This document shows, one piece after another, positions 1,082 through 49,569 of a stretch of DNA of 64,000 bases. Position numbers and translations under genes: made by a program. Below the pieces are notes generated by a model. It ran no database searches. It saw only the letters and a program-made list of their open reading frames with translations, and was not told the origin of the DNA. The first letter of the stretch is position 1. The number at the start of each line of letters is the position of its first letter. Where the stretch lies: assembly GCF_014205215.1 (NCBI RefSeq), contig NZ_JACHNC010000001.1, forward strand, positions 5,886,501-5,950,500. Reading direction: 5' to 3'. The stretch is from Actinoplanes lobatus (GTDB taxonomy: Bacteria; Actinomycetota; Actinomycetes; Mycobacteriales; Micromonosporaceae).

Positions 1082-1277
1082 GCGAATCTTCCCGGCCGGT
1101 GCGGTGCGCGGTTCAAGACAAGGCCCCCGATCGCGGTGCCGACCGTGTTCGACGTCCCGCCGTTCCACTTCTGTAGTCGTTTTCTGCAGTCGTTCCGCGC
1201 GGAACCGGTCGAGGCCGTCAGAATCCGGCCTAACGTTGACGGTGACCGGCTTCCCGACTCTCCTTGGGGGTGCCCTG

Positions 1278-1874
1278 ATGCAAACGTCAGTCGGTAGAAC
1301 TCTGATCACGGCGGTCCTCGGCGTGGCGCTTGCCGCCTGCGGCGCCGTGGCCGCCGACTCCTCTTCCGCCAATAGCGGCACCGCCCCCGCAGCCGGGGAG
1401 GCTCGGGCCGGTCTGGCATCGGCTCCCGCGTGCGCCATCACCTGGGGCAGCGGCGAGAAGACCGCCGGCGCACTCAGTTCGGCTCTCCTGCTCACTGCGG
1501 AGACCGGCCGGCACGAGTGTTGGGACCGGGTGGTCTTCGAGTTCGGCGGCAGCGCACTCGGCTATTCGGTGCGTTACAGCGATCAGGTCCCGACCGAAGG
1601 CCGGGGCGAGGATCTGGTCCCCTATACCGCGGGCGGATCGCACCTCTGGGTCACCCTGCGTGCGCCGGCATCGACATTCGATGCGACCAGCGGTGAACAT
1701 GTCGCCAACGTCCTGTCCTACGACACCCTGCGAGATGTCGTCTTCGGCGGCTCCTTCGAGGGGTACACCACCTTCGCCGTCGGTGTGCGCGCCCGGCTTC
1801 CGTTCCGAGTCACGACTCTGGCCGGTCCGGGCACTCACTCCCGCATCGTTGTGGACGTCGCACACCGCTGGTGA
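1278..1874 (+). CDS. Secreted AMIN-like domain lipoprotein
   Basis: 198 aa. The N-terminus has a short hydrophobic stretch ending in a lipobox (ALAACG, Cys about residue 21), so export and lipidation are expected. The mature part carries the pattern CAITWGSGEKTAG ... TGRHECWDRVVFEFGG typical of the AMIN-like lipoproteins of Streptomyces and Actinoplanes, a beta-sandwich related to cell-envelope AMIN domains. Two Cys residues may form a disulfide. A GGGGG stretch 7 bases before ATG 1278 is a good ribosome site. The precise role at the cell surface is unknown for the family. Confidence 0.75.
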   Translation: MQTSVGRTLITAVLGVALAACGAVAADSSSANSGTAPAAGEARAGLASAPACAITWGSGEKTAGALSSALLLTAETGRHECWDRVVFEFGGSALGYSVRYSDQVPTEGRGEDLVPYTAGGSHLWVTLRAPASTFDATSGEHVANVLSYDTLRDVVFGGSFEGYTTFAVGVRARLPFRVTTLAGPGTHSRIVVDVAHRW

Positions 1875-1910: not shown

Positions 1911-2014
1911 CGGATGACCTCAGAGGCTGACCGGGTCATGCCATGCTCCTGGGTCGGGCACCGGACAGGCCCTACGCTGTGCTGGTCAGCGGGCGGTCGC
2001 GCGGTGAGGTGAGC

Positions 2015-4771
2015 ATGGGGTGGCGGCACGGATCCGGCGAGGCGGAGCGGCTGCAACGGGCCGCCGCCGTGGAACTCACCCGGGCGATGGAGGACGACGA
2101 CCCGGCTGCCTATGAGCGGGCCACCGACCTGCTGGAACAGGTGCTGCGGATGTTCGGGCCGGGCGTTCCACAGTGGGCGCCACTGCACGCCGCCTGCGGA
2201 AACGCGCTGCTGCGCCGGTTCCAGCTGACCGGGGACATCGCCGTGCTCCGCGAATCGGTGCGATGCGGCCAGGTCGCTGTCGACGCGGCCGGAACCGTGG
2301 ACGCGGAGACCCGGGCGGTCCTGCACCACCAGCTCGCGGTGGCGTTGCGGCACCTGTTCGAGGCCCGGGGCAACCCGGACGATCTGGAAGCGGCGCTGCT
2401 CAGTGCCCGTCTCTCGATCGCCGTACCGATTCCCGACCAGGACTTCCTTGCCTCCTGCCAGGCGCAACTCGGGGTTCTCCTGCGGCTGCGGCACCTGATC
2501 AGCGGGTCGGTCGCCGACATCGACGAGGCCGTGACGGTGTGCCGGCAGGCGGTGGCCGCGGTGCCGAAACCGGGTGGGGACCGTGCGTCCCATCTGAACA
2601 ATCTGGCTTCCGCGCTGTGGGCCCGCTTCGAACAGGACGGCGGCATGCGCGACCTGGAGGACGCGGCACGGGCCGCCGAACAGGCGCTGGACGCCTCGCC
2701 GGACGAGCACCCGGAACAGCCGATGATCATGGGCACGCTCGGGACGGTCCTACGCTGCCGGGGCGAGCGCACCGGGTCGGCCGAGGACCTCGACACCGCC
2801 CTCGACCTGCTGGATCGTGCGATCGCCGCCACCGAACCGTCGTCGGCGCGGTGGCCGCTGTACATCGCCGACCGGGCCGCCGTGTTCCGCGCCCGGTTCG
2901 ACCTGTCCGGTGCCGACGAAGACCTCGACCGGGCCGTCACCGAGACCGCGGCCGCCCTGCAACGCCCCGATCTGGTCGGGGCCGAATACCCGGGCATACT
3001 GGTCAACCTGGCGACCGCCCGGGCGGTACGGTTCGCGCGACTTGGTGCGGCCGCGGACCTCCGCGACGCCGTGGCGGCCCTACGGAAAGCGCGGGCACTG
3101 CTGTCCAGCGACGACCCGCGGCGGGCCGTGGTCACCGCCGAACTGGGCTCCTGCCTACTCGGCCGCCACGACCGCACCGGCTCCGCGGACGATCTGGACG
3201 AGGCGGTCCGCCTCCTCGAAGAGGCGGCGCTCCCCGACCTGACGCCCCTCTCCGGCTCCGGTGTGCTTCCCGGCTCGCTCTCCGATCCTGGGACGCTGCC
3301 TGGTCCCGGGATGCCGCCTGGTCCTGGGACGGTGCCAGATTCTGGGATGCCGCCTGGTCCTGGGACGGTGCCTGGTCCTGGGACGGTGCCTGGTCCTGGG
3401 ACGCTGCCTGAATCCGGGGCGATTTCTGGTCCGGGCGCGACTCCTGATCCCGGTGCGATCCCCGATCCGGGGGCGCGCCCGGACCCGGGGGCGAACGCCG
3501 ACCCCGTACGGGGGGAGGATGACACCTCCTCTCGCGGTGGTGGTGATCGTGGTTCCTCCCGCGGGGATGACGATGGTGGTTCTCATCGCGGTGCCAGAGA
3601 CGGCAGGTCTCCTCACGGTGGTACCGCCGACAGGGAGCAGGCCGCGGGCTGGCTCGTCAATCTGAGCCATGTACTGCGACGACGCTGGCAGGAACGGGGA
3701 GATCCCGCTGATCTGGACGCGGCGGTCCGGCACGCCGCAACGGCGGCGCAACGGCTCGCGGCCGTCGACCCCCGGCGGATCGCCGCGTTGACCGCTGAGG
3801 GCATCGCCCGGTACGACCGTTTCCGGAGCCGGGGTGACACCACCGATCTGGCGGCCGGTATCGCGGTGCTCGGCGAGGCTCTGGACCGGACCGGAGGCCG
3901 GCGTCCCGGGCATGGCCTGCTGCTCAGCGCCTACGGAGCGGCACTTGCCGCCCGAGCCGAGCGGACCGGCCGCTCTGGCGATCTACGCGGCGCCGTCTCC
4001 TACTGGCGGGAGGCGTCCTCGACCGGTGCCGCCCATGTCACCGATCGTCTCGACGCGGCCGTCCGCTGGGGTCAGACGGCGGCCGCGTCCGGAAATCCAC
4101 GGCTGGCGGCGGAGGGATACCGGACCGCGGTGACGCTGCTGGACCTGCTCGCCTGGCGAGGGCTGGACGGCGGAGACCAGCGGCACCGGCTCGCCGCCTG
4201 GCCCGGCCTCGCCGCCGACGCCGCGGCCTGCGAACTGACCGCCGATTCCGCGGCCCGCGAGATCGCCGATTCCGCGGCCCGCGAGATCGCCGATTCCGCG
4301 GCCCGCGAGATCGCCGATTCCGCGGCCCGCGAGATCGCCGATTCCGCGGCCCGCGAGATCGCCGATTCCGCGGCCCGCGAGATCGCCGATTCCGCGGCCC
4401 GCGAGATCGCCGATTCCGCGGCCCGCGAGATCGCCGATTCCGCGGCCCGCGAGATCGCCGATTCCGCGGCCCGCGAGATCGCCGATTCCGCGGCCCGCGA
4501 GATCGCCGATTCCGCGGCCCGCGAGATCGCCGATTCCGCGGCCCGCGAGACCGCAGATTTCTCGGCCCGCGAGGCTGTCGATTTCGCGGCCCGCGAGGTG
4601 ACCGCCGATCCGGCCGGGGCGATCAGCGGCCTGGAAGCGGGCCGGTCGGTCCTCTGGGCCCAACTGCTCGAGCTCCGTGCCGACGTCCGGGACCGCCATC
4701 CGAACCTGCCGCCCGATTTGGCCGCCCGGCTGAATCGGGTTCGCCGGGCTCTGGACCGGCCCGCCGCCTGA
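2015..4771 (+). CDS. TPR-type helical repeat protein lacking a CHAT domain, with P/G-rich linker and 15 octapeptide repeats
   Basis: 918 aa. Residues about 1-410 and 540-740 are 40-50-residue helical repeats with recurring motifs such as GDPADLDAAVRHAATA and LLDRAIAATEP, the solenoid that precedes CHAT domains in actinobacterial TPR-CHAT proteins. Residues about 411-500 are a P/G-rich stretch of PGPGTV-like hexamers, then a charged Ser/Gly/Arg linker to about 537. Residues 744-863 are fifteen octapeptides, twelve identical (DSAAREIA). The C-terminus (LEAGRSVLWAQLLELRADV ... RRALDRPAA) is the helix that normally leads into CHAT, but the protein stops there. ATG 2015 is preferred over upstream starts because GGTGAG lies 6 bases before it. 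A stand-alone CHAT gene lies convergently downstream. Role unknown; probably a scaffold or sensor. Confidence 0.8.
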   Translation: MGWRHGSGEAERLQRAAAVELTRAMEDDDPAAYERATDLLEQVLRMFGPGVPQWAPLHAACGNALLRRFQLTGDIAVLRESVRCGQVAVDAAGTVDAETRAVLHHQLAVALRHLFEARGNPDDLEAALLSARLSIAVPIPDQDFLASCQAQLGVLLRLRHLISGSVADIDEAVTVCRQAVAAVPKPGGDRASHLNNLASALWARFEQDGGMRDLEDAARAAEQALDASPDEHPEQPMIMGTLGTVLRCRGERTGSAEDLDTALDLLDRAIAATEPSSARWPLYIADRAAVFRARFDLSGADEDLDRAVTETAAALQRPDLVGAEYPGILVNLATARAVRFARLGAAADLRDAVAALRKARALLSSDDPRRAVVTAELGSCLLGRHDRTGSADDLDEAVRLLEEAALPDLTPLSGSGVLPGSLSDPGTLPGPGMPPGPGTVPDSGMPPGPGTVPGPGTVPGPGTLPESGAISGPGATPDPGAIPDPGARPDPGANADPVRGEDDTSSRGGGDRGSSRGDDDGGSHRGARDGRSPHGGTADREQAAGWLVNLSHVLRRRWQERGDPADLDAAVRHAATAAQRLAAVDPRRIAALTAEGIARYDRFRSRGDTTDLAAGIAVLGEALDRTGGRRPGHGLLLSAYGAALAARAERTGRSGDLRGAVSYWREASSTGAAHVTDRLDAAVRWGQTAAASGNPRLAAEGYRTAVTLLDLLAWRGLDGGDQRHRLAAWPGLAADAAACELTADSAAREIADSAAREIADSAAREIADSAAREIADSAAREIADSAAREIADSAAREIADSAAREIADSAAREIADSAAREIADSAAREIADSAAREIADSAARETADFSAREAVDFAAREVTADPAGAISGLEAGRSVLWAQLLELRADVRDRHPNLPPDLAARLNRVRRALDRPAA
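3293..3420 (+). repeat. 18-bp imperfect tandem repeat encoding PGPGTV-type hexapeptides
   Basis: In-frame repeats of a unit like GCCTGGTCCTGGGACGGT inside the TPR gene, several adjacent copies identical. They code for a flexible Pro/Gly linker between two solenoid blocks. Confidence 0.8.
4244..4603 (+). repeat. 24-bp minisatellite, 12 perfect copies plus 3 diverged, inside the TPR gene
   Basis: Unit starts GATTCCGCGGCCCGCGAG and repeats every 24 bases from 4244; units at 4244 through 4508 are identical, units at 4532, 4556 and 4580 diverge progressively (AREIA to ARETA, AREAV, AREVT). The array is in frame and free of stops. Diverged copies only at the 3' edge suggest expansion of internal copies by slippage or unequal exchange. 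The helical, alternating-charge octapeptide would extend the solenoid or form a long single helix. Confidence 0.97.
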
Positions 4772-4901
4772 AGGACAGCGCGCGAAACAGGCCGGCTCGC
4801 GGCGCACGAGCACCCGTGGTCAAGGTCCGCGTCTCGCTTCCGGCGTCTTTCCCGGTACGCGTGACGCCGCCCGTTCCTATCAGGACCGTTCTGCCCAGCC
4901 A

Positions 4902-4965
4902 CGCGAGCTTCGTGCCACCCCAGCCTTTGCCGCGCCCACCGGGCGCAGATCGGTGGTCCCGCACC
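4902..4965 (+). repeat. Interspersed ~65-bp repeat, copy A
   Basis: Begins CGCGAGCTTCGTGCCAC and contains GCGCCCACCGGGCGCAGATC. It is an inverted partner of the copy at 5365-5432, and similarity seems to continue weakly about 20 bases outward. Confidence 0.6.
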
Positions 4966-5364
4966 ACCACGCCGCCCGCCTTGAGTTGACGACAACCGCA
5001 TCAACATGTTGACGACGGGGTTGACGGTGTTCAGTGCAGACGACGAGGTTGACGGTGTCCAGTACATAGGTGATGTAGCTGTCGGCGTGTCTGTTCACCT
5101 CGGCTGTGAATGCTGTGGGCGACGTCCGAGGGGCCGGCGCGCACGAAGGCCTGTGCGTGTGCACGTGTCGGGGTCACCGGCCGGGTGGGCGGACACGGTA
5201 GCGGCGGCGTGTGAGCCGGTCTGGGCTGTGGGTCTGTGGACGAGGACCAAGTGGGACGGCGCTACGTCAGGGAGTGGACAGCCCGGGTGGCTGGTGAGCT
5301 GGGCGCGGTCACTGATCAGCGTGAGCGGCAGCAGAAGCGGGCGCCGGAGCTCGCCGTGACCACG

Positions 5365-5432
5365 CTGGGTTGCCGGGCCACCGATCTCAGCCCGGCGGGC
5401 GCGGCACGGGCTGGAGTGGCAGGGAGCTCGCG
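5365..5432 (-). repeat. Interspersed ~68-bp repeat, copy B
   Basis: Read on the minus strand it begins CGCGAGCTCCCTGCCAC and contains the core GCGCCCGCCGGGCTGAGATC. Within it GCCGGGC and GCCCGGC can pair as a 7-bp stem. It lies about 60 bases past the stop of the CHAT gene. Confidence 0.65.
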
Positions 5433-5490
5433 GGGAGCCGCGGGGCGGTCAGGATTTTTCGGGGGCGGCCTTTGCCCGTACCGGAAAGGG

Positions 5491-6741
5491 TTATGGGCCT
5501 GTGTGTGAGAAAGGGGTCCAGACGCTGGGCTGGTCGGGGTGGTCGCGGCGGAGTTCGCGGACCGCGTGGTGCAGGGCCTCGGCGGCGCGGTCGGCGTCGA
5601 GGACGCCGTTGTGGGCGAGGCGTTCGTAGACGCGTTCGGCTACCTGGGCGGCTTCGGCGTCCAGGACCGACCACAGGGTGGCCACGACGTGCCGGAAGCC
5701 GGTGTAGTGCAGGGCCGCGGCCAGGGTGATCGCCTCGTCGGGGAGGGTGACACCGCCGACCGCGGTCTTGCAGCCGGACAGGTAGGCGAAGTCGCCGCGA
5801 TGCTGCTGGGCGCTCAGGTCGGTGACGGTGAGCATGCCGTCGTGGACCAGGACGCCGCCGTGGGACGGGTCGGCCAGGTTCTGTTCGCCGTGGCAGGCGA
5901 AGTGGGCCCAGCGGTGGCCGCGCATCTCGCGCAGCACGTCGTCGCGGGTGGCGTGGGAGCCGATCAGCTCGGTGCGGTTGTCGCCGAACAGGCGTGCGAC
6001 CAGGCGTTCCTCGACGCGGACGTTCGGCAGGGAGGCCTGGCCCTCGGTTTCCGGCATGCCGACGAAGAGCATCCGCGCGGCGCCGGCCTCGGCGTCCGGC
6101 TGGGGGCGGCGGGCTTCGACGAGGGCGCGCAGCGTCGGCGTGTACGACGAGATGACCCGGTCGATGACGGCCGCTCCGGGTGTGGCGTGGTCGCCGGCCG
6201 CGTGGATCGGCAGCAGGGTGAGCGGGCCGGTCGGGCACCACCAGACGCGTGGCCACTCCCCGTCGGCGGGCGGGGGCGCCGTGTGGCCGAGATGGTCGAG
6301 CACGGGCCGGGCGAACGACTCCCACATCCAGCGCAGGCAGTCGTCCAGGAGGGATTCGACGTCGTCGGTCGCGCCTTCGACGACCAGGTCCCGGGGGTCC
6401 CGATGGTCGCCGCGCAGCACCCGGAGCTGACGGTCGCCGACCGCCTCCAGGTACGCCTCGACGCGCTCGCCGACGATGTTCTGGGTGAGGTCCGGCAGGG
6501 GGATCGTGGTGACCTCGGTCTCGTGCACGATCAGGGCGTCGCAGCGCCAGCGGCTCACGTTGATGATCACGACGGGGCCGCCGGACGCGGCCGGGAGCAG
6601 GGTCTCCAGCCTCGGCGGGCGCAGGAAGTCCTCGAAACCCTCGATGGCGCGGACCTGTTCGACCAGTTCGTCCCACTCGCGGGCGAGGGCCATCCGCCGG
6701 TCGACGTCCTGGGTGAAGCGCTCGGGGCTGCCGGGCATCAT
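5491..6741 (-). CDS. Stand-alone CHAT-domain protein (caspase-like peptidase fold)
   Basis: 416 aa. The first ~45 residues (FTQDVDRRMALAREWDELVE, then GFEDFLRPP) are the helical linker that follows the TPR solenoid in fused TPR-CHAT proteins. The rest is a complete CHAT domain with both catalytic positions retained: His284 in HFACHGEQN and Cys324 in YLSGCKTAVGG, ending in the family-typical PSVWTPFSHTGP. CHAT proteins are caspase/separase-clan cysteine peptidases or adaptors; some, such as the TPR-CHAT partner of type III-E CRISPR effectors, act in defence. The frame stays open to 6954 but that part overlaps the MFS control region; ATG 6741 follows a GGGGCG ribosome site. Divergent from the MFS gene and convergent with a CHAT-less TPR gene. 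Substrate unknown. Confidence 0.85.
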   Translation of the reverse strand: MMPGSPERFTQDVDRRMALAREWDELVEQVRAIEGFEDFLRPPRLETLLPAASGGPVVIINVSRWRCDALIVHETEVTTIPLPDLTQNIVGERVEAYLEAVGDRQLRVLRGDHRDPRDLVVEGATDDVESLLDDCLRWMWESFARPVLDHLGHTAPPPADGEWPRVWWCPTGPLTLLPIHAAGDHATPGAAVIDRVISSYTPTLRALVEARRPQPDAEAGAARMLFVGMPETEGQASLPNVRVEERLVARLFGDNRTELIGSHATRDDVLREMRGHRWAHFACHGEQNLADPSHGGVLVHDGMLTVTDLSAQQHRGDFAYLSGCKTAVGGVTLPDEAITLAAALHYTGFRHVVATLWSVLDAEAAQVAERVYERLAHNGVLDADRAAEALHHAVRELRRDHPDQPSVWTPFSHTGP

Positions 6742-6861
6742 CGCCCCATCAAACCCGACGATTGTCCGCAGTGGAACCGGCGGAACGTCCGACCCCGTAC
6801 GGCTGTCGGTGGGCAGCGCGACGCCCCAGGGTTGCGTGACCGGCGACACTTTCGATACGAG

Positions 6862-6877
6862 ACCGTTCCGTTTTGAT
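6862..6877. promoter_or_regulatory. Second, imperfect TetR-type operator overlapping the -35 region
   Basis: GACCGTTCCGTTTT repeats the right half of the perfect palindrome at 6903-6923 and overlaps a putative -35 TTGATG (6873-6878). Candidate secondary site of the TetR protein encoded at 8521. Confidence 0.5.
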
Positions 6878-6902
6878 GGAGGCGGGACTAGCGTGGCGAT
6901 AG

Positions 6903-6923
6903 GAAACGGAACGGTTCCGTTTC
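6903..6923. promoter_or_regulatory. Perfect 21-bp palindromic operator in front of the MFS exporter
   Basis: Arms GAAACGGAAC and GTTCCGTTTC around a single central G. It directly follows a -10-like CGATAG (6897-6902) placed 18 bases after TTGATG, so a bound repressor would cover the transcription start. The TetR gene two genes downstream is the obvious candidate ligand-responsive repressor. Confidence 0.8.
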
Positions 6924-6946
6924 GAAAAAGGTTTCGGGGGCCGCAC

Positions 6947-8506
6947 ATGACCAAAGCTCAACCCCAGACCGGGCATCCCCGCCGATGGGCGATCCTCGGT
7001 GTGCTGGTCATCAGCCTGCTGGTGGTCGTGCTCGACAACACGGTGCTCAACGTCGCGATGCGCACCATCGCCGACCCGGACAAGGGCCTCGGCGCCACAC
7101 AGAGCGAACTCGAATGGGCGATCAACTCGTACACCCTGGTGTTCGCCGGACTCCTCTTCACCGCCGGCATCCTGGCCGACCGGCTCGGCCGCCGGCTCAG
7201 CCTGGTCGCCGGCCTGGTGATCTTCGGTGTCGCGTCGCTCATCTCGGCGTACGCGAGCTCGCCCGACCAGCTGATCGCGGCCCGCGCCGTGATGGGCCTC
7301 GGCGCCGCGGCCGTCATGCCGGCCACCCTGTCGATCATCGCCAACGTCTTCGACCCGCTGGAGCGCCCGCGCGCCATCGGCGTCTGGGCCGGAGCCGTCG
7401 GCCTGGCCGTCGCGATCGGCCCGGTCCTCGGCGGCCTGCTGCTCGAACACTTCTGGTGGGGTTCGGTCTTCCTGATCAACGTGCCCATCGTGGTGATCGG
7501 CCTGGTCCTGGTGGCCGTGCTCGTGCCGGAGTCGCGTGACCCGAAGCCGGGCCGCATCGACGTGCTCGGCGTGATCCTGTCGATCGTCGGCCTCACCCTC
7601 ATCACCTACGGCGTGATCAAGGGCGGCGAGGACGGCTTCGGCGAGACGGCGGCCTGGTCCACCCTCACCGCCGGCCTGCTCGTCCTGGCCGGATTCGTGC
7701 TCTACGAGCGCCGGATCACCTTCCCGTCGCTGGACGTGCGCCTCTTCACCAACCGGCAGTTCTCCGCGTCGACCGGCATCATCGGGCTGGTCTTCTTCGC
7801 GGCGATGGGGTCGATGTTCTTCGGCGCCTTCTACCTCCAGATGGTCCGCGGGTACGGTCCGCTCGCGTCGGGCGCGCTGTTCGTGCCGTTCGCGCTCGGT
7901 CAGATGATCTTCGCGCCGGCCAGTTCCTCGCTGGTCAAGCGGTTCGGCCCGAAGGCGGTCAGCACCGTCGGCCTGCTGCTGGTCTCGGCCGCTCTCAGCC
8001 TGTGGCTGTTCATCGGCGTGGACACCCCGATCGCGCTGGTCGCGCTGGCGTTCTTCGTCCAGGGCGTGGGCATGGCCAACGTCATGCCGCCGGCCACCGA
8101 GGCGATCATGTCGGCGCTGCCCCGGGAGAAGGCCGGCGTCGGCTCGGCGGTCAGCAACACGATCCGCCAGCTCGGCGGCGCGCTCGGCGTGGCGGTCCTC
8201 GGCGCGGTCGTCTCCTCGGTCTACCGCGATCACCTGACCACCCCGGCCGGGCTGCCGGACGCCGCCGCCGACGTGGCCCACGAGTCGATCGCCGGCGCCT
8301 ACGCGGTGGCCGGGCAGGCCGGACCGGCCGCGCCCGCGCTGCTGGCCGGCGCCGACAGCGCCTTCGTCACGGCGATGCACTACGCGGCCGTCGGTTCGAC
8401 CGTCTTCGCCCTGCTCGGCGTCCTGGTGGCGGTGCTCTGGCTGCCCGGCCGGCGCCCCGCGGCCGCCCCCGCGGAAGCACATGACCTGCAACTAGCCGAC
8501 GCGTAA
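6947..8506 (+). CDS. MFS drug/H+ antiporter, EmrB/QacA (DHA2, 14-TM) type
   Basis: 519 aa with about 14 hydrophobic segments. The first helix carries LVVVLDNTVLNVAM, the DHA2 signature at the end of TM1, and the loop 2-3 motif is ADRLGRRLSL; GXXXXGPVLGG (AVAIGPVLGGLL) is the antiporter motif C. It should export a hydrophobic or cationic compound in exchange for protons. ATG 6947 follows a GGGGG stretch. It forms a unit with the TetR gene 14 bases downstream, and a perfect palindrome covers its promoter, so induction by its own substrate through TetR is likely. The compound is not identifiable. Confidence 0.92.
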   Translation: MTKAQPQTGHPRRWAILGVLVISLLVVVLDNTVLNVAMRTIADPDKGLGATQSELEWAINSYTLVFAGLLFTAGILADRLGRRLSLVAGLVIFGVASLISAYASSPDQLIAARAVMGLGAAAVMPATLSIIANVFDPLERPRAIGVWAGAVGLAVAIGPVLGGLLLEHFWWGSVFLINVPIVVIGLVLVAVLVPESRDPKPGRIDVLGVILSIVGLTLITYGVIKGGEDGFGETAAWSTLTAGLLVLAGFVLYERRITFPSLDVRLFTNRQFSASTGIIGLVFFAAMGSMFFGAFYLQMVRGYGPLASGALFVPFALGQMIFAPASSSLVKRFGPKAVSTVGLLLVSAALSLWLFIGVDTPIALVALAFFVQGVGMANVMPPATEAIMSALPREKAGVGSAVSNTIRQLGGALGVAVLGAVVSSVYRDHLTTPAGLPDAAADVAHESIAGAYAVAGQAGPAAPALLAGADSAFVTAMHYAAVGSTVFALLGVLVAVLWLPGRRPAAAPAEAHDLQLADA

Positions 8507-8520
8507 ACCGGTCGGCAACA

Positions 8521-9135
8521 ATGAACGCCATGAACACCAGCACCGCGGCCGGCCAGGAGCGCAAGGCTCCTGGCCGGCCCCGCAGCGCCCAGGCCGACGA
8601 GACCATCCTCGACGCGGTGCTGGCGCTGCTCGGCGAGGGCCAGAGCGCCGCGGCCGTCTCCATCGAGGCGGTCGCCGCTCGGGCCGGCGTCGGCAAGGCC
8701 ACCATCTACCGGCGCTGGCCCAACAAGGAGGCGCTGCTCATCGACGCGGTCCGGGCCATGAAGGGCCCGCTGCCCGAACTGGCCGGCCACTCGGTCCGGG
8801 AGGACCTGATCGCGCTGGTCCAGGCGAACCGCACAGCGCGCGCCCAGCGGCACAGCAAGGTGACCGCCTGCCTGATGCCGGAGCTGCTCCGCGACGACGA
8901 GCTGAGCCGGATGTACCGGGACTTCATCGAGCCCCGCCGCGAGGTGACCCGCCAGGTGCTGCGGCGCGGCATCGAGACCGGCGAGCTACGGCCCGACCTC
9001 GACGTCGAGTTGACTCAGATCATGCTGTCGGCGCCCGGCATGATGCAGTCGATCTTCCACTTCAACCTCGCGATCCCGGAGGACAGGTTCGCCGAGACCC
9101 TCGTCGACGCCGTTCTCCGCGGCGCCGCCGCTTGA
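8521..9135 (+). CDS. TetR-family repressor of the adjacent MFS exporter
   Basis: 204 aa. Residues about 20-65 form the TetR helix-turn-helix with VSIEAVAARAGVGKATIYRRW and PNKEALL. The C-terminal ligand-binding region (VREDLIALVQANRTA ... IEPRREVTRQVLRRG) matches the TetR_C group that often neighbours multidrug exporters. An alternative ATG at 8530 is equally possible, as no strong ribosome site is seen; translation may be partly coupled to the exporter. It probably binds the palindrome at 6903-6923. Confidence 0.9.
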   Translation: MNAMNTSTAAGQERKAPGRPRSAQADETILDAVLALLGEGQSAAAVSIEAVAARAGVGKATIYRRWPNKEALLIDAVRAMKGPLPELAGHSVREDLIALVQANRTARAQRHSKVTACLMPELLRDDELSRMYRDFIEPRREVTRQVLRRGIETGELRPDLDVELTQIMLSAPGMMQSIFHFNLAIPEDRFAETLVDAVLRGAAA

Positions 9136-47412: not shown

Positions 47413-49569
47413 TCACCCTCGACCGGAGCGCGTCCGCCGTACCGTTGCCGGGTTTTGATCCAGGTCTGAAGCGCTCTCCAGGCGGGCGCGGCAGGCGGCG
47501 AGGCGCGCCGCCAGCTCCGGGGCCTGTTCAGCAAGAGCCCGCAGATCGGTACGTGTGTTCAACAGTTGACTCCAATACACACCCCGGCCCGTCTCCAGCA
47601 GCTCGGTGGCCAACCCCGGCCGCTCCGCCAGCGCCGCGGCGGCGCCGTTGGGCACCAGGTCCCCGGCATAGGCATGCAGCAGGCCCCACTGGTCGTGGCC
47701 GTCGATTCCCCGCCACGCCAGCAGCGGCAGCAAACGGACCGCCTCGGTGTACGCGGTGACGGCCGTGTCCGGACCGGTGGAACCGGTGACCGCCCGCACC
47801 CAGCCGGCCGCGGCGTCGACCCGGTTGACGATCGGCGCGAGCGTGCACCCGGTGGCCTCCCGGAGCACCCGGACAGCGGTGGCCAGATCGCCCCGCTCCC
47901 CGGTGAGCTGGAACCGGGCGAAGAGCGCGCCACCGAGGTTGGTGAGGCGTCCCGCGAGGTCGGGATGGTCCGGGGGAGTGGCGCGGACCGCCTGTTCGTG
48001 CACCGTGACGGCCTCGTCCAGGTCGGCGTGGCTGTGCAGCGCGCAACCCAGGTTGGAGAGGATCGCGGCGCGATCCGGATGGTCCACGGCCAAATCCGCC
48101 ACCGCCCGCCGCCCGGTGGCGATCGCCTCCGCGAGATCGGACGGGTCGCCGTGCCGCTCGAACCGCATGTAGAGCGCCCTGCCGAGATTGGCGACGTAGG
48201 TGACGCGAGCCGGGTGACCGATCGGTGTGGCATCCACCGCGGCCCGCCCGATCGTGACCGCCTCGCCCAGGAAACCGTCGTCGCCGAACCGCTTGAACCG
48301 GGTGACCAGGGCGCCACAGAGGTTGGCCGCACATCTGGCGCGATCCGGGTGATCGGCCGGGGACCCGCCGAGCGCCGCCCGGCCCGCCTCGATCGCCGTG
48401 TTCAGGTCCTCCCGGGCCCCGGCCAGCTCGAAGCGGGTGTGCAGCGCGACGGCGAGGTTGGACAGGGCGCCGGCCCGGTCCGGGTGCCCGGCGGGCAGAC
48501 GGCGTTCGACCTGGCGGAAGCCGGCGACCGCCCCGTCGAGATCGGCCCCGGTCCCGGTCCGGTCGAAGCGCCGGTGCAACGCGGCGGCCAGGTTGAGCAG
48601 GACGGCCGTGTGCTGGAGCCGGTCCGGCGACGCGGCGGCGAGGGCCCGCCGGTGAACGGTGACCGCCTCGTCGAGATCGGCGACAGCGCCCAGGCGCTCG
48701 AACCGGTTCAGCAGCGCCACCCCGAGGTTGGTGAAGGCCGCGGCGTCCCGGATGCCGTTCTCGGTGAGAGCGCCGGTGACCTCCCGGAAGCTGTCGACCG
48801 CCTGGTTCAGGTCGGCGATCTCCCCGGTCCGCTGGAAACGGCTCAGCAGGGTGTTCCCGAGGTTGCTCGCGTGCACGGCGAGCGCCGGGTCGCGTGCCGG
48901 GGTGGCGGCGATGGCCGACCGGTGGGCGTCGACGGCCCGGTCCAGGTCGCCCTGGTCGCCGGCGTGCTGAAAACGGGCCAGCAAGGCGTTCCCCAGCCCG
49001 GACAGCAAGGCTCCCCGGCGAAGGTCGTACGCGGGCGCGGCCTGGACCGCCGCCGCGGCGAGCTGGATCGCCTCCTCCAGGGAAGCGCTGTCCCCGGTGT
49101 GCTCGAACCGGAGCCGCAGGGGAATGCCGAGATTCGACAGACGCTGCGGATGGTCCGGGTCGTCCGTGGAGCCCGCGGCCACCGATCGTCTCGTGGCGGC
49201 GATCGCCTCGTCCAGGTCGGCGAGGTTGCCGAACCTGTCGAACCGGGCCCGGAGCGCCACGCCGAGGTTGGACAGCGTGACGGCCAGATCCGGGTCGCCG
49301 GCCGGTGTCGCGGCCACGGCCTCCCGCTGACAGTCGATCGCCGCGTCCAGATCGCCGGTGGCGCCGGCGGCTTCCCATCGGTGCCGCAGGGCGACACCGA
49401 GGTTGATCAGGGCATGGGTCCGGTCGGGATGATCCGTGGGGACGGCGGCCAGGACGGCCCGGGCGAAGTCGATGGCATCGTCCAGCGGCCCCGGCTCGCC
49501 GAGCAGCGTCGCCACCTCCAGCAGGTCGCCCGCCCTCCGCAACCTCGCGGTGGCCCGGCCGCCCAACAT
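47413..49569 (-). CDS. Second TPR-type helical repeat protein without a CHAT domain
   Basis: 718 aa, about 12-13 regular ~47-residue repeats with motifs GDLDAAIDCQREAVAATPAGDPD and LSNLGVALRARFDRFG. The C-terminus LLETGRGVYWSQLLNTRTDL ... LAARLAACRARLESA is the connector that leads into CHAT domains in fused proteins; here only a short RTRSGRG tail follows. It has the same truncated architecture as the protein at 2015, but its repeats are much more regular and it has no inserted linker or octapeptides. Likely a protein-interaction scaffold. Confidence 0.85.
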   Translation of the reverse strand: MLGGRATARLRRAGDLLEVATLLGEPGPLDDAIDFARAVLAAVPTDHPDRTHALINLGVALRHRWEAAGATGDLDAAIDCQREAVAATPAGDPDLAVTLSNLGVALRARFDRFGNLADLDEAIAATRRSVAAGSTDDPDHPQRLSNLGIPLRLRFEHTGDSASLEEAIQLAAAAVQAAPAYDLRRGALLSGLGNALLARFQHAGDQGDLDRAVDAHRSAIAATPARDPALAVHASNLGNTLLSRFQRTGEIADLNQAVDSFREVTGALTENGIRDAAAFTNLGVALLNRFERLGAVADLDEAVTVHRRALAAASPDRLQHTAVLLNLAAALHRRFDRTGTGADLDGAVAGFRQVERRLPAGHPDRAGALSNLAVALHTRFELAGAREDLNTAIEAGRAALGGSPADHPDRARCAANLCGALVTRFKRFGDDGFLGEAVTIGRAAVDATPIGHPARVTYVANLGRALYMRFERHGDPSDLAEAIATGRRAVADLAVDHPDRAAILSNLGCALHSHADLDEAVTVHEQAVRATPPDHPDLAGRLTNLGGALFARFQLTGERGDLATAVRVLREATGCTLAPIVNRVDAAAGWVRAVTGSTGPDTAVTAYTEAVRLLPLLAWRGIDGHDQWGLLHAYAGDLVPNGAAAALAERPGLATELLETGRGVYWSQLLNTRTDLRALAEQAPELAARLAACRARLESASDLDQNPATVRRTRSGRG

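What the first reader, a model, noticed from the sequence alone, without database searches (positions are those of the whole stretch)
2015..6741. TPR and CHAT halves of a normally fused protein lie as two convergent genes
The TPR protein ends exactly at the connector that precedes CHAT in fused actinobacterial TPR-CHAT proteins, and the CHAT protein on the other strand begins with the next helix of the same architecture and keeps both catalytic residues (His284, Cys324). Either an ancestral gene was split by inversion at the domain border, leaving inverted repeats in the 719-bp junction, or these genes form a deliberate two-component sensor-protease system. Known TPR-CHAT proteins include the peptidase of type III-E CRISPR systems, so a defence or cell-death role is possible, though no nucleic-acid sensor is nearby.
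Basis: partly seen in the sequence, partly recalled or inferred. Interest (0 to 1): 0.75.

Follow-up and report, generated by a model that had tools for sequence, protein, structure and literature searches.

The report
Caspase-like protease with separate TPR sensors
Two neighbouring genes in an Actinoplanes-like soil bacterium make the sensor half and the caspase-like cutting half of what is often one protein, and the genome carries many more such sensor halves but only one free cutting half of this kind, which suggests that many sensors may share one executioner protease.

Summary
A TPR protein (1943-4771, +) stops at the connector that precedes CHAT in fused TPR-CHAT proteins. A convergent gene (6741-5491, -) encodes a complete CHAT protease with invariant His284 and Cys324. 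The recent-inversion reading does not hold. The nearest relative has the same pair, and the free CHAT falls in an old actinomycete group (40 free, 8 fused of 48 tree rows). The junction repeats are a dispersed genomic element.

Of 41 free-CHAT loci, 40 have a TPR gene nearby, in all four orientations; 18 have two or more. TPR proteins that end at the connector without CHAT ('orphan sensors') occur almost only with a free CHAT: two or more in 13 of 22 free-CHAT genomes against 1 of 22 fused-only genomes. The home genome has 16 intact orphan sensors and one free CHAT of this kind.

Best reading: a sensor/protease system in separate chains, with several TPR sensors sharing one protease. Binding, activity, trigger and substrate are inferred. 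About half of the relatives add a zinc-ribbon-like and a membrane protein without Pfam family; the membrane protein was not found in this genome. Seven searches of an open-licence library found no description.

The parts
1943..4771 (+). TPR sensor protein ending in the connector module, no CHAT (942 aa from ATG 1943; 918 aa from ATG 2015)
   Evidence: dN/dS 0.27 against genome G019
4034..4756 (+). connector module (about 120 residues) that precedes CHAT in fused TPR-CHAT proteins; here interrupted by the 24-bp repeat array
   Evidence: connector matches at genome 5890534-5890761 and 5890915-5891256, i.e. window 4034-4261 and 4415-4756
4240..4597 (+). in-frame tandem array, 24-bp unit x 14.9 (8-residue repeat ADSAAREI), inside the connector; absent in G019
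   Evidence: the G019 protein has no such array
3284..3504 (+). in-frame 18-bp repeats (Pro/Gly-rich insert) between TPR blocks; absent in G019
4772..5490 (.). 719-bp junction with inverted copies (4879-4963 / 5371-5455) of a dispersed repeat
5491..6741 (-). stand-alone CHAT caspase-like protease, 416 aa, His284/Cys324
   Evidence: AlphaFold2 pLDDT 87.2; dN/dS 0.35
47413..49569 (-). a second orphan TPR-connector sensor (718 aa) within this window, ending 20 residues after the connector, no CHAT; best G019 match 89% identical over 139 residues

Best explanation
The locus is a sensor/protease system in which the two halves of a TPR-CHAT protein are separate polypeptides. SHOWN by sequence: one complete free CHAT protease with its His/Cys dyad; TPR proteins that stop at the connector where CHAT would begin; both genes under purifying selection; a TPR neighbour in 40 of 41 sampled free-CHAT loci, in every orientation; one old group of free CHATs with fused rows nested inside it; 16 intact orphan sensors to one free CHAT of this kind in this genome. 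INFERRED: the C-terminal connector of a TPR sensor docks onto the free CHAT much as it does within the fused protein; when the TPR superhelix binds its trigger the connector moves and opens the CHAT active site (the route described for the TPR-CHAT Csx29); several sensors compete for or share one protease, so different triggers converge on one executioner. The substrate is unknown here. In about half of the relatives the adjacent zinc-ribbon-like or membrane protein is the first candidate. A defence or regulated-death role is plausible by family analogy only.
For: Tiling without overlap, and a split point in a flexible loop of the fused model. 40 of 41 free-CHAT loci have a TPR neighbour: nearest one protease-first tandem 20, convergent 7, divergent 7, sensor-first 6; 18 of 41 have two to four TPR genes. 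In sensor-first G060 the genes overlap by ATGA, and in G013 CHAT starts within 3 nt of the TPR stop. Tree of 94 CHATs: the free state needs 5 changes, shuffled mean 30.6; fused rows G032, three Frankia, and G023 + Lentzea lie inside the 48-row group. Orphan sensors: 74 in 22 free-CHAT genomes against 3 in 22 fused-only genomes; two or more in 13/22 against 1/22, Fisher p 2e-4. Outside the family: 1 orphan among 59 classified connectors (of 60) in 20 fused-only genomes; in 20 free-CHAT genomes 16 of 17 fetched connectors away from the CHAT cluster are fused. Home genome: 15 further orphans end 1-24 residues after the connector, and 10 of 16 lie within 600 kb of the CHAT, expected 1.9. Nearest-sensor and CHAT distances correlate, r 0.50 over 36 loci, 0/2000 shuffles.
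Against: No physical interaction was tested and no complex was modelled (single chains only). 'At least one orphan' is partly circular, because the split partner is itself an orphan; only the 'two or more' comparison is fair, and 9 of 22 free-CHAT genomes have just one. Genome-wide dispersal is seen mainly in G000, G019 and G159, with single cases in G009, G114, G204 and G335 (several of these on other contigs, so at unknown distance); elsewhere sensors are local clusters. The home sensor beside CHAT has its connector interrupted by a repeat array, which could impair it. Exceptions: three orphans in two family genomes classed as fused-only (G099, G140; in each a CHAT lies in another frame just downstream of one of them, so they may be misfiled) and one in G354. 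Three connector proteins in free-CHAT genomes continue into another C-terminal part (G108, G159, G199). The membrane partner was not found in this genome, so the output is unknown. The tree is by the quick method with open forks; direction (fused first) rests on midpoint rooting.
Confidence: 0.62

Rival explanations
1. Neutral gene fission: an ancestral TPR-CHAT gene broke at its domain border and rearranged; the pieces still make the same two-chain enzyme one-to-one, and the other orphan sensors are TPR paralogues that have no dealings with the protease.
For: 22 of 41 free-CHAT loci show a single TPR gene and 9 of 22 family genomes have only one orphan. Drosophila separase is a one-to-one split of the same fold family (PMC4847790, passage).
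Against: Orphans keep the connector (that is how they were found); in the home genome they end 1-24 residues after it; they are nearly absent where no free CHAT exists; at 29-56% identity to their best paralogues they are not fresh debris.
Confidence: 0.22
2. The orphan TPR-connector proteins are inhibitors or decoys that keep the protease silent (securin-like or immunity-like) rather than activating sensors.
For: Same predicted binding module; the protease would need restraint; excess of orphans over free CHAT (16 to 1) fits titration.
Against: Long, variable TPR superhelices and turnover between close relatives (4 of 11 G019 orphans have no G000 counterpart above 66% identity in the compared stretch) fit ligand sensing better than a constant inhibitor; fused relatives carry the same module in cis.
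Confidence: 0.1
3. Recent split by inversion at this locus, possibly a decaying pseudogene pair.
For: Inverted repeat in the junction; large in-frame repeat arrays that G019 lacks.
Against: Same convergent pair in G019; both frames open with dN/dS 0.27 and 0.35; the free-CHAT group is old; the junction repeat is dispersed; no shared inverted match over 9 nt at the two would-be ends.
Confidence: 0.06

Closest known systems
Csx29 (TPR-CHAT) of type III-E CRISPR, the Craspase protease
   Same: Closest solved relative by sequence (E 4.5e-10 for the profile) and by fold (Foldseek rank 1 for both models); catalytic His and Cys align; TPR superhelix followed by linker and CHAT.
   Different: One chain instead of two; NCBIfam Csx29 model 39 bits against cut-off 300; no Rfam family above threshold in the window; Cas7-11 was not searched for.
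Separase (eukaryotic caspase-like protease), with Drosophila SSE + THR as a split form
   Same: Next fold family among the Foldseek matches. In Drosophila the protease lacks the large N-terminal region and forms a complex with THR, which appears to come from a gene split (PMC4847790, passage).
   Different: No separase among the 7 PDB sequences found by the profile at E <= 0.01; one regulator for one protease; role in chromosome segregation.
Fused actinomycete TPR-CHAT proteins of unknown function
   Same: Same connector and CHAT subfamily; direct relatives in the tree.
   Different: Sensor and protease in one chain; almost no orphan sensors in the fused-only genomes examined.
Caspase-containing conflict systems of multicellular prokaryotes (Kaur et al. 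2020, PMC7159879; 2021, PMC8195603; passages seen)
   Same: Separate sensor, adaptor and caspase-like effector components in multicellular bacteria; some membrane partners.
   Different: 'CHAT' as a whole word does not occur in either main text; none of the passages shown has a free CHAT with TPR-connector proteins, zinc ribbon and membrane protein. The full texts and supplements were not read.

Membership tests
CHAT proteases | CHAT domain with His/Cys dyad | tested here: met
   PF12770 E 2.6e-42; His284/Cys324 invariant; fold as Csx29 and separase
CHAT proteases | protease activity | not testable with these tools
   needs biochemistry
Csx29 / Craspase TPR-CHAT | TPR and CHAT in one chain | tested here: not met
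   two genes on opposite strands
Csx29 / Craspase TPR-CHAT | above the NCBIfam Csx29 cut-off | tested here: not met
   39 bits against 300
Csx29 / Craspase TPR-CHAT | encoded with Cas7-11/gRAMP, crRNA array and Csx30 | not tested
   Rfam finds no family above threshold in the window; Cas7-11, arrays and Csx30 were not searched for
Known anti-phage defence systems (PADLOC 2023) | match to any model at E <= 0.01 | tested here: not met
   0 of 5 proteins
Free-CHAT / TPR-connector system (described here) | free CHAT within the 48-row tree group and a TPR-connector gene nearby | tested here: met
Free-CHAT / TPR-connector system (described here) | zinc-ribbon-like + membrane genes next to CHAT (optional, both in 19 of 41 loci) | tested here: not met
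   absent beside the window pair; membrane protein not found in the genome; zinc ribbon not searched genome-wide
Separase | sequence-level membership | tested here: not met
   fold similarity only

The most novel reading that the evidence does not exclude
A bacterial sensor network with a shared executioner: one free CHAT protease is the common 'helper' for a genome-wide set of TPR sensor proteins (16 in this genome), each ending in the same docking connector, so that sensors can multiply and diversify without copying the dangerous protease. This would be a bacterial counterpart, by architecture, of plant sensor-NLR/helper-NLR networks (comparison recalled, from no call).
Probability: 0.4. Interest if true: 0.87.

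Novelty: new variant of a known kind. Interest (0 to 1): 0.7.

Why it matters
TPR-CHAT proteases are known as single chains, and the best understood one is driven by a CRISPR effector. A widespread actinomycete form in which the protease is free and TPR sensors are separate, multiplied and rearranged gives a simple genetic handle on how CHAT proteases are switched on: sensor and protease can be expressed apart, and the question 'can one protease serve many sensors' becomes directly testable. It also points to two uncharacterised partner proteins (zinc-ribbon-like and membrane protein) as candidate substrates or effectors, and it names a connector that can be used to find orphan sensors in other genomes.

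Tried and rejected
Inversion scar: the junction's inverted repeat looked like a breakpoint signature, but it recurs at 46 other places, and the two would-be inversion ends (4650-4900 and 6600-6960) share no inverted match longer than 9 nt. Gene duplication with complementary loss (both genes followed by the same sequence) was considered for the same reason and dropped. Chance neighbourhood: connector proteins are rare (18 in 10.4 Mb here), so by my estimate one would lie within 7 kb of a random gene in about 3% of cases or fewer, against 40 of 41 loci with a TPR neighbour (which counts TPR frames with or without a recognised connector); no simulation was run. Frameshift splits: G008 and G140:C14 look like broken fused genes; G008 was counted as fused in the tree, G140 was left counted as an orphan against my reading. 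A recurring neighbour of the orphan sensors in the home genome was sought and not found; of the 51 matches, the 25 shown look like antisense shadow frames of TPR genes, one fused CHAT, and one frame pair in L178/L185 that I did not follow. Membrane partner in the home genome: sought, none. Defence libraries: none. Literature: seven searches aimed at this arrangement in the open-licence PMC library found Craspase and conflict-system papers but no description of free CHATs with orphan TPR-connector sensors; subscription journals and bioRxiv are not covered, and supplements could not be read.

Limits of the counts: searches scored only 14 and 6 candidates per genome, so the 300-genome survey gives presence, not full counts; the focused search scored 101 per genome. 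In one search, 76 of 77 unmatched connector hits outside G000 were classified (the one left out is a second match in an already fetched G204 protein). G000 was taken (16 entered by hand; the frameshifted L186 is not counted). In one search, 60 of 61 planned hits were fetched and classified; 20 connectors of the fused-only genomes and 5 of the free-CHAT genomes were taken as fused because their frame lengths equal those of loci already annotated, and 32 at the CHAT clusters were not fetched again. The free-CHAT and fused-only sets were picked by me, in score order, from the table and from the loci. In one search, duplicates and broken loci (L070, L075, L077, L078, L092, L094, L098, L118, L169) were dropped before the count.
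Full report
WHAT IS THERE. The window lies at 5,886,501-5,950,500 of the 10.4-Mb genome G000. By its nearest named relative, Actinoplanes flavus NEAU-H7 (91% CHAT identity), it is an Actinoplanes-like actinomycete. The TPR gene (1943-4771, +) and the CHAT gene (6741-5491, -) are open, convergent and separated by 719 bp. The CHAT protein matches PF12770 at 2.6e-42, and His284 and Cys324 are invariant in two alignments, 13 of 13 and 41 of 41 rows. They align with the His and Cys of a solved Craspase TPR-CHAT chain. For that family H585/C627 are described as the catalytic dyad, and mutation of C627 abolishes cleavage (PMC9729208, passages seen). The TPR protein ends in a ~120-residue connector that directly precedes CHAT in fused relatives.

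TILING AND STRUCTURE. Against the fused protein of G032 (1073 aa) the window's TPR half aligns to residue 664 and the CHAT half covers 675-1073. An AlphaFold2 model of that fused protein (pLDDT 87.0, 25 sequences) has two stretches below pLDDT 50; one is 673-678, between the last connector helix and the first CHAT helix, where the window's two genes part. The window's CHAT alone folds as a complete domain with its own first helix 6-31 (pLDDT 87.2). Best structural matches of both models are Csx29/TPR-CHAT chains, followed by separase. No complex could be modelled here.

NOT A RECENT SPLIT. Genome G019 has the same convergent pair. Between G000 and G019 dN/dS is 0.35 for CHAT and 0.27 for the TPR protein, so both are maintained. 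The inverted repeat in the junction recurs at 46 other places in this genome (80 match rows merged within 300 bp, a lower bound), and the would-be inversion ends share no inverted match over 9 nt. Other genomes show the same two genes sensor-first with overlap or contact (G013, G060; junction DNA), divergent (G025), protease-first (G009), or fused (G032, G023). A tree of 94 CHAT domains, 40 free and 54 fused, puts all 40 free ones in a 48-row group (SH-aLRT 95, starred, open fork) with 8 fused rows. The 46 rows outside are all fused. The state needs 5 changes (4 forced by starred branches) against 30.6 in shuffles. With the root outside the group, the simplest story is one old separation followed by re-fusions (G032; three Frankia; G023 with Lentzea), with two fused rows (L114, L125) unresolved at its base. 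The tree is a 'quick' one and the root is a midpoint, so the direction is inferred.

THE FREE CHAT KEEPS TPR COMPANY. The genome-contig scan confirmed 447 relatives of 479 candidate stretches and kept the best 80 loci, actinobacterial by their titles. After removing duplicates and broken loci, 41 free-CHAT loci remain: 40 have a TPR gene within the fetched stretch (the exception is a 7-kb contig; in one, L133, the nearest is 5.3 kb away), nearest one protease-first tandem in 20, convergent in 7, divergent in 7, sensor-first in 6. Two or more TPR genes are present in 18 of 41. Kribbella has five connector proteins without CHAT around one CHAT. Free CHATs of this size are common: 770 proteins at E<=1e-20 among 7,995 scored, a search that by design leaves out long fused ones.

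ORPHAN SENSORS FOLLOW THE FREE CHAT. I made a connector profile (A2, 22 rows). In 300 genomes of the family, 136 have a connector match and 136 a CHAT match of this kind, 134 of them the same genomes by my comparison of the two tables. I then compared 22 genomes with a free CHAT and 22 with only fused CHATs, taken in score order, and fetched the connector hits not already matched to a fused CHAT, 76 of 77 outside G000. Connector proteins that end within 70 residues and have no in-frame CHAT ('orphans') number 74 in the first set and 3 in the second. At least one: 22/22 against 2/22, partly circular because the split partner counts. At least two: 13/22 against 1/22, Fisher p 2e-4. In both exceptional fused-only genomes (G099, G140) a CHAT lies in another frame just downstream of one orphan, so they may be misfiled. 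Outside the family, 20 free-CHAT and 20 fused-only genomes were searched. Of 60 connectors in fused-only genomes, 20 lie at the known fused loci (by frame length), and of 39 others classified 38 are fused and 1 is an orphan. In free-CHAT genomes (58 connectors), 32 lie at the CHAT cluster, 5 at other loci known to be fused, and of 21 fetched 16 are fused and 5 orphan; 4 of those 5 lie just beside the CHAT cluster. So orphans go with free CHATs, usually as local clusters.

THE HOME GENOME IS THE EXTREME CASE. Here 18 connector proteins were found: the window's TPR protein, 15 further intact orphans that end 1-24 residues after the connector, one frameshifted orphan, and one fused to a distant CHAT. 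PF12770 gives 21 matches in the genome, and the window's CHAT is the only one above 60 bits in a frame shorter than 770 aa; the other short frame (350 aa, 31 bits) looks like half of a CHAT that continues in a 1109-aa frame. Ten of 16 sensors lie within 600 kb of the CHAT, expected 1.9, 0 of 100,000 shuffles as high. They are 29-56% identical to their best paralogues, and 7 of 11 G019 orphans have a counterpart at 84% or more in the stretch compared, the other 4 at 41-66%: a shared core plus turnover. One further orphan lies in this window at 47413-49569. The genome-wide spread is seen in G000, G019 and G159, and as single cases in G009, G114, G204 and G335, several of them on other contigs; it is not general.

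PARTNERS. Near CHAT, usually directly downstream, 19 of 41 free-CHAT loci and 7 of 48 fused loci carry both a ~110-residue protein with five cysteines invariant in 7 aligned rows and a ~200-residue protein with two clear hydrophobic segments and a weaker third. The ones scanned have no Pfam family above cut-off and, for one of each, no PADLOC or NCBIfam match. In the 44 family genomes the membrane protein was found in 18; 15 of its 19 match rows lie within 2 kb of a CHAT domain, and none is in G000, G019, G013, G060 or G032. The window's lineage therefore seems to lack this output, and its substrate is open.

HOW IT PROBABLY WORKS. By analogy with Csx29, where a trigger moves the linker between TPR and CHAT and opens the active site (PMC9729208, passages) and the protease then cuts a partner protein (PMC10028731, passages), I propose that the connector of a separate TPR sensor docks on the free CHAT and relays binding of the sensor's trigger to the active site. 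Evidence for trans docking is indirect: conserved ending at the connector, fused rows nested in the free group, linkage in every orientation, correlated distances of nearest sensor and CHAT (r 0.50, 36 loci; fused 0.62, 49 loci; 0 of 2000 shuffles), and orphans nearly confined to free-CHAT genomes. A precedent for a split of this fold family is Drosophila separase: SSE lacks the large N-terminal region and forms a complex with THR, thought to come from a gene split (PMC4847790, passage). Trigger, substrate and biological role are not shown.

KNOWN OR NEW. It is not Csx29 (two chains; 39 against 300 bits) and not in PADLOC. The two conflict-system surveys by Kaur et al. do not use the word CHAT in their main text (passages seen). 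Seven literature searches of the open-licence library did not find this arrangement; that is no proof of absence from print. I rate it a new variant of the TPR-CHAT kind. The many-sensors-one-protease reading is the bold version and is not excluded by anything seen here.

Noticed in passing
window 4879-4963, 5371-5455 and 46 other places in the genome (lower bound): A dispersed ~140-bp repeat, with matches on both strands at many of the places; it may be a terminator-like or MITE-like element.
   Followed up: partly
window 4240-4597 and 3284-3504: Two in-frame repeat arrays (24 bp x 14.9; 18-bp units) sit inside the TPR gene of this genome and are absent in G019; the first lies in the connector itself and adds a long ADSAAREI stretch.
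   Followed up: partly
window 6850-6927: Inverted repeat (24 nt, 88%) between the CHAT gene and an MFS-transporter-like gene, with a TetR-like regulator at 8521 (both names by my reading of the sequence); looks like an operator for the transporter, unrelated to the finding.
   Followed up: no
window about 1080-1968: A stretch with ORF 1104-1874 (+) upstream of the TPR gene has no match in G019, where the flanks are about 60 bp apart.
   Followed up: no
L126, L130, L135, L144, L146: In a Streptomyces branch the sensor next to the free CHAT continues for some 510-550 residues past the connector instead of ending there; in the two scanned (L126, L144) this is a second TPR block.
   Followed up: no
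L102, L104, L106, L111, L126, L130, L139 and others, near CHAT: Uncharacterised five-cysteine zinc-ribbon-like protein and a probable membrane protein, conserved beside free and some fused CHATs, without Pfam family in those scanned.
   Followed up: partly
G008 (L070), G140:C14 (L258), L186: Fused or orphan genes of this family that look broken by frameshifts (or sequencing errors).
   Followed up: no
Foldseek hits of both models: The transmembrane anti-sigma factor DdvA (8rot) is among the better structural matches of both models; one literature search did not bring up its paper.
   Followed up: no
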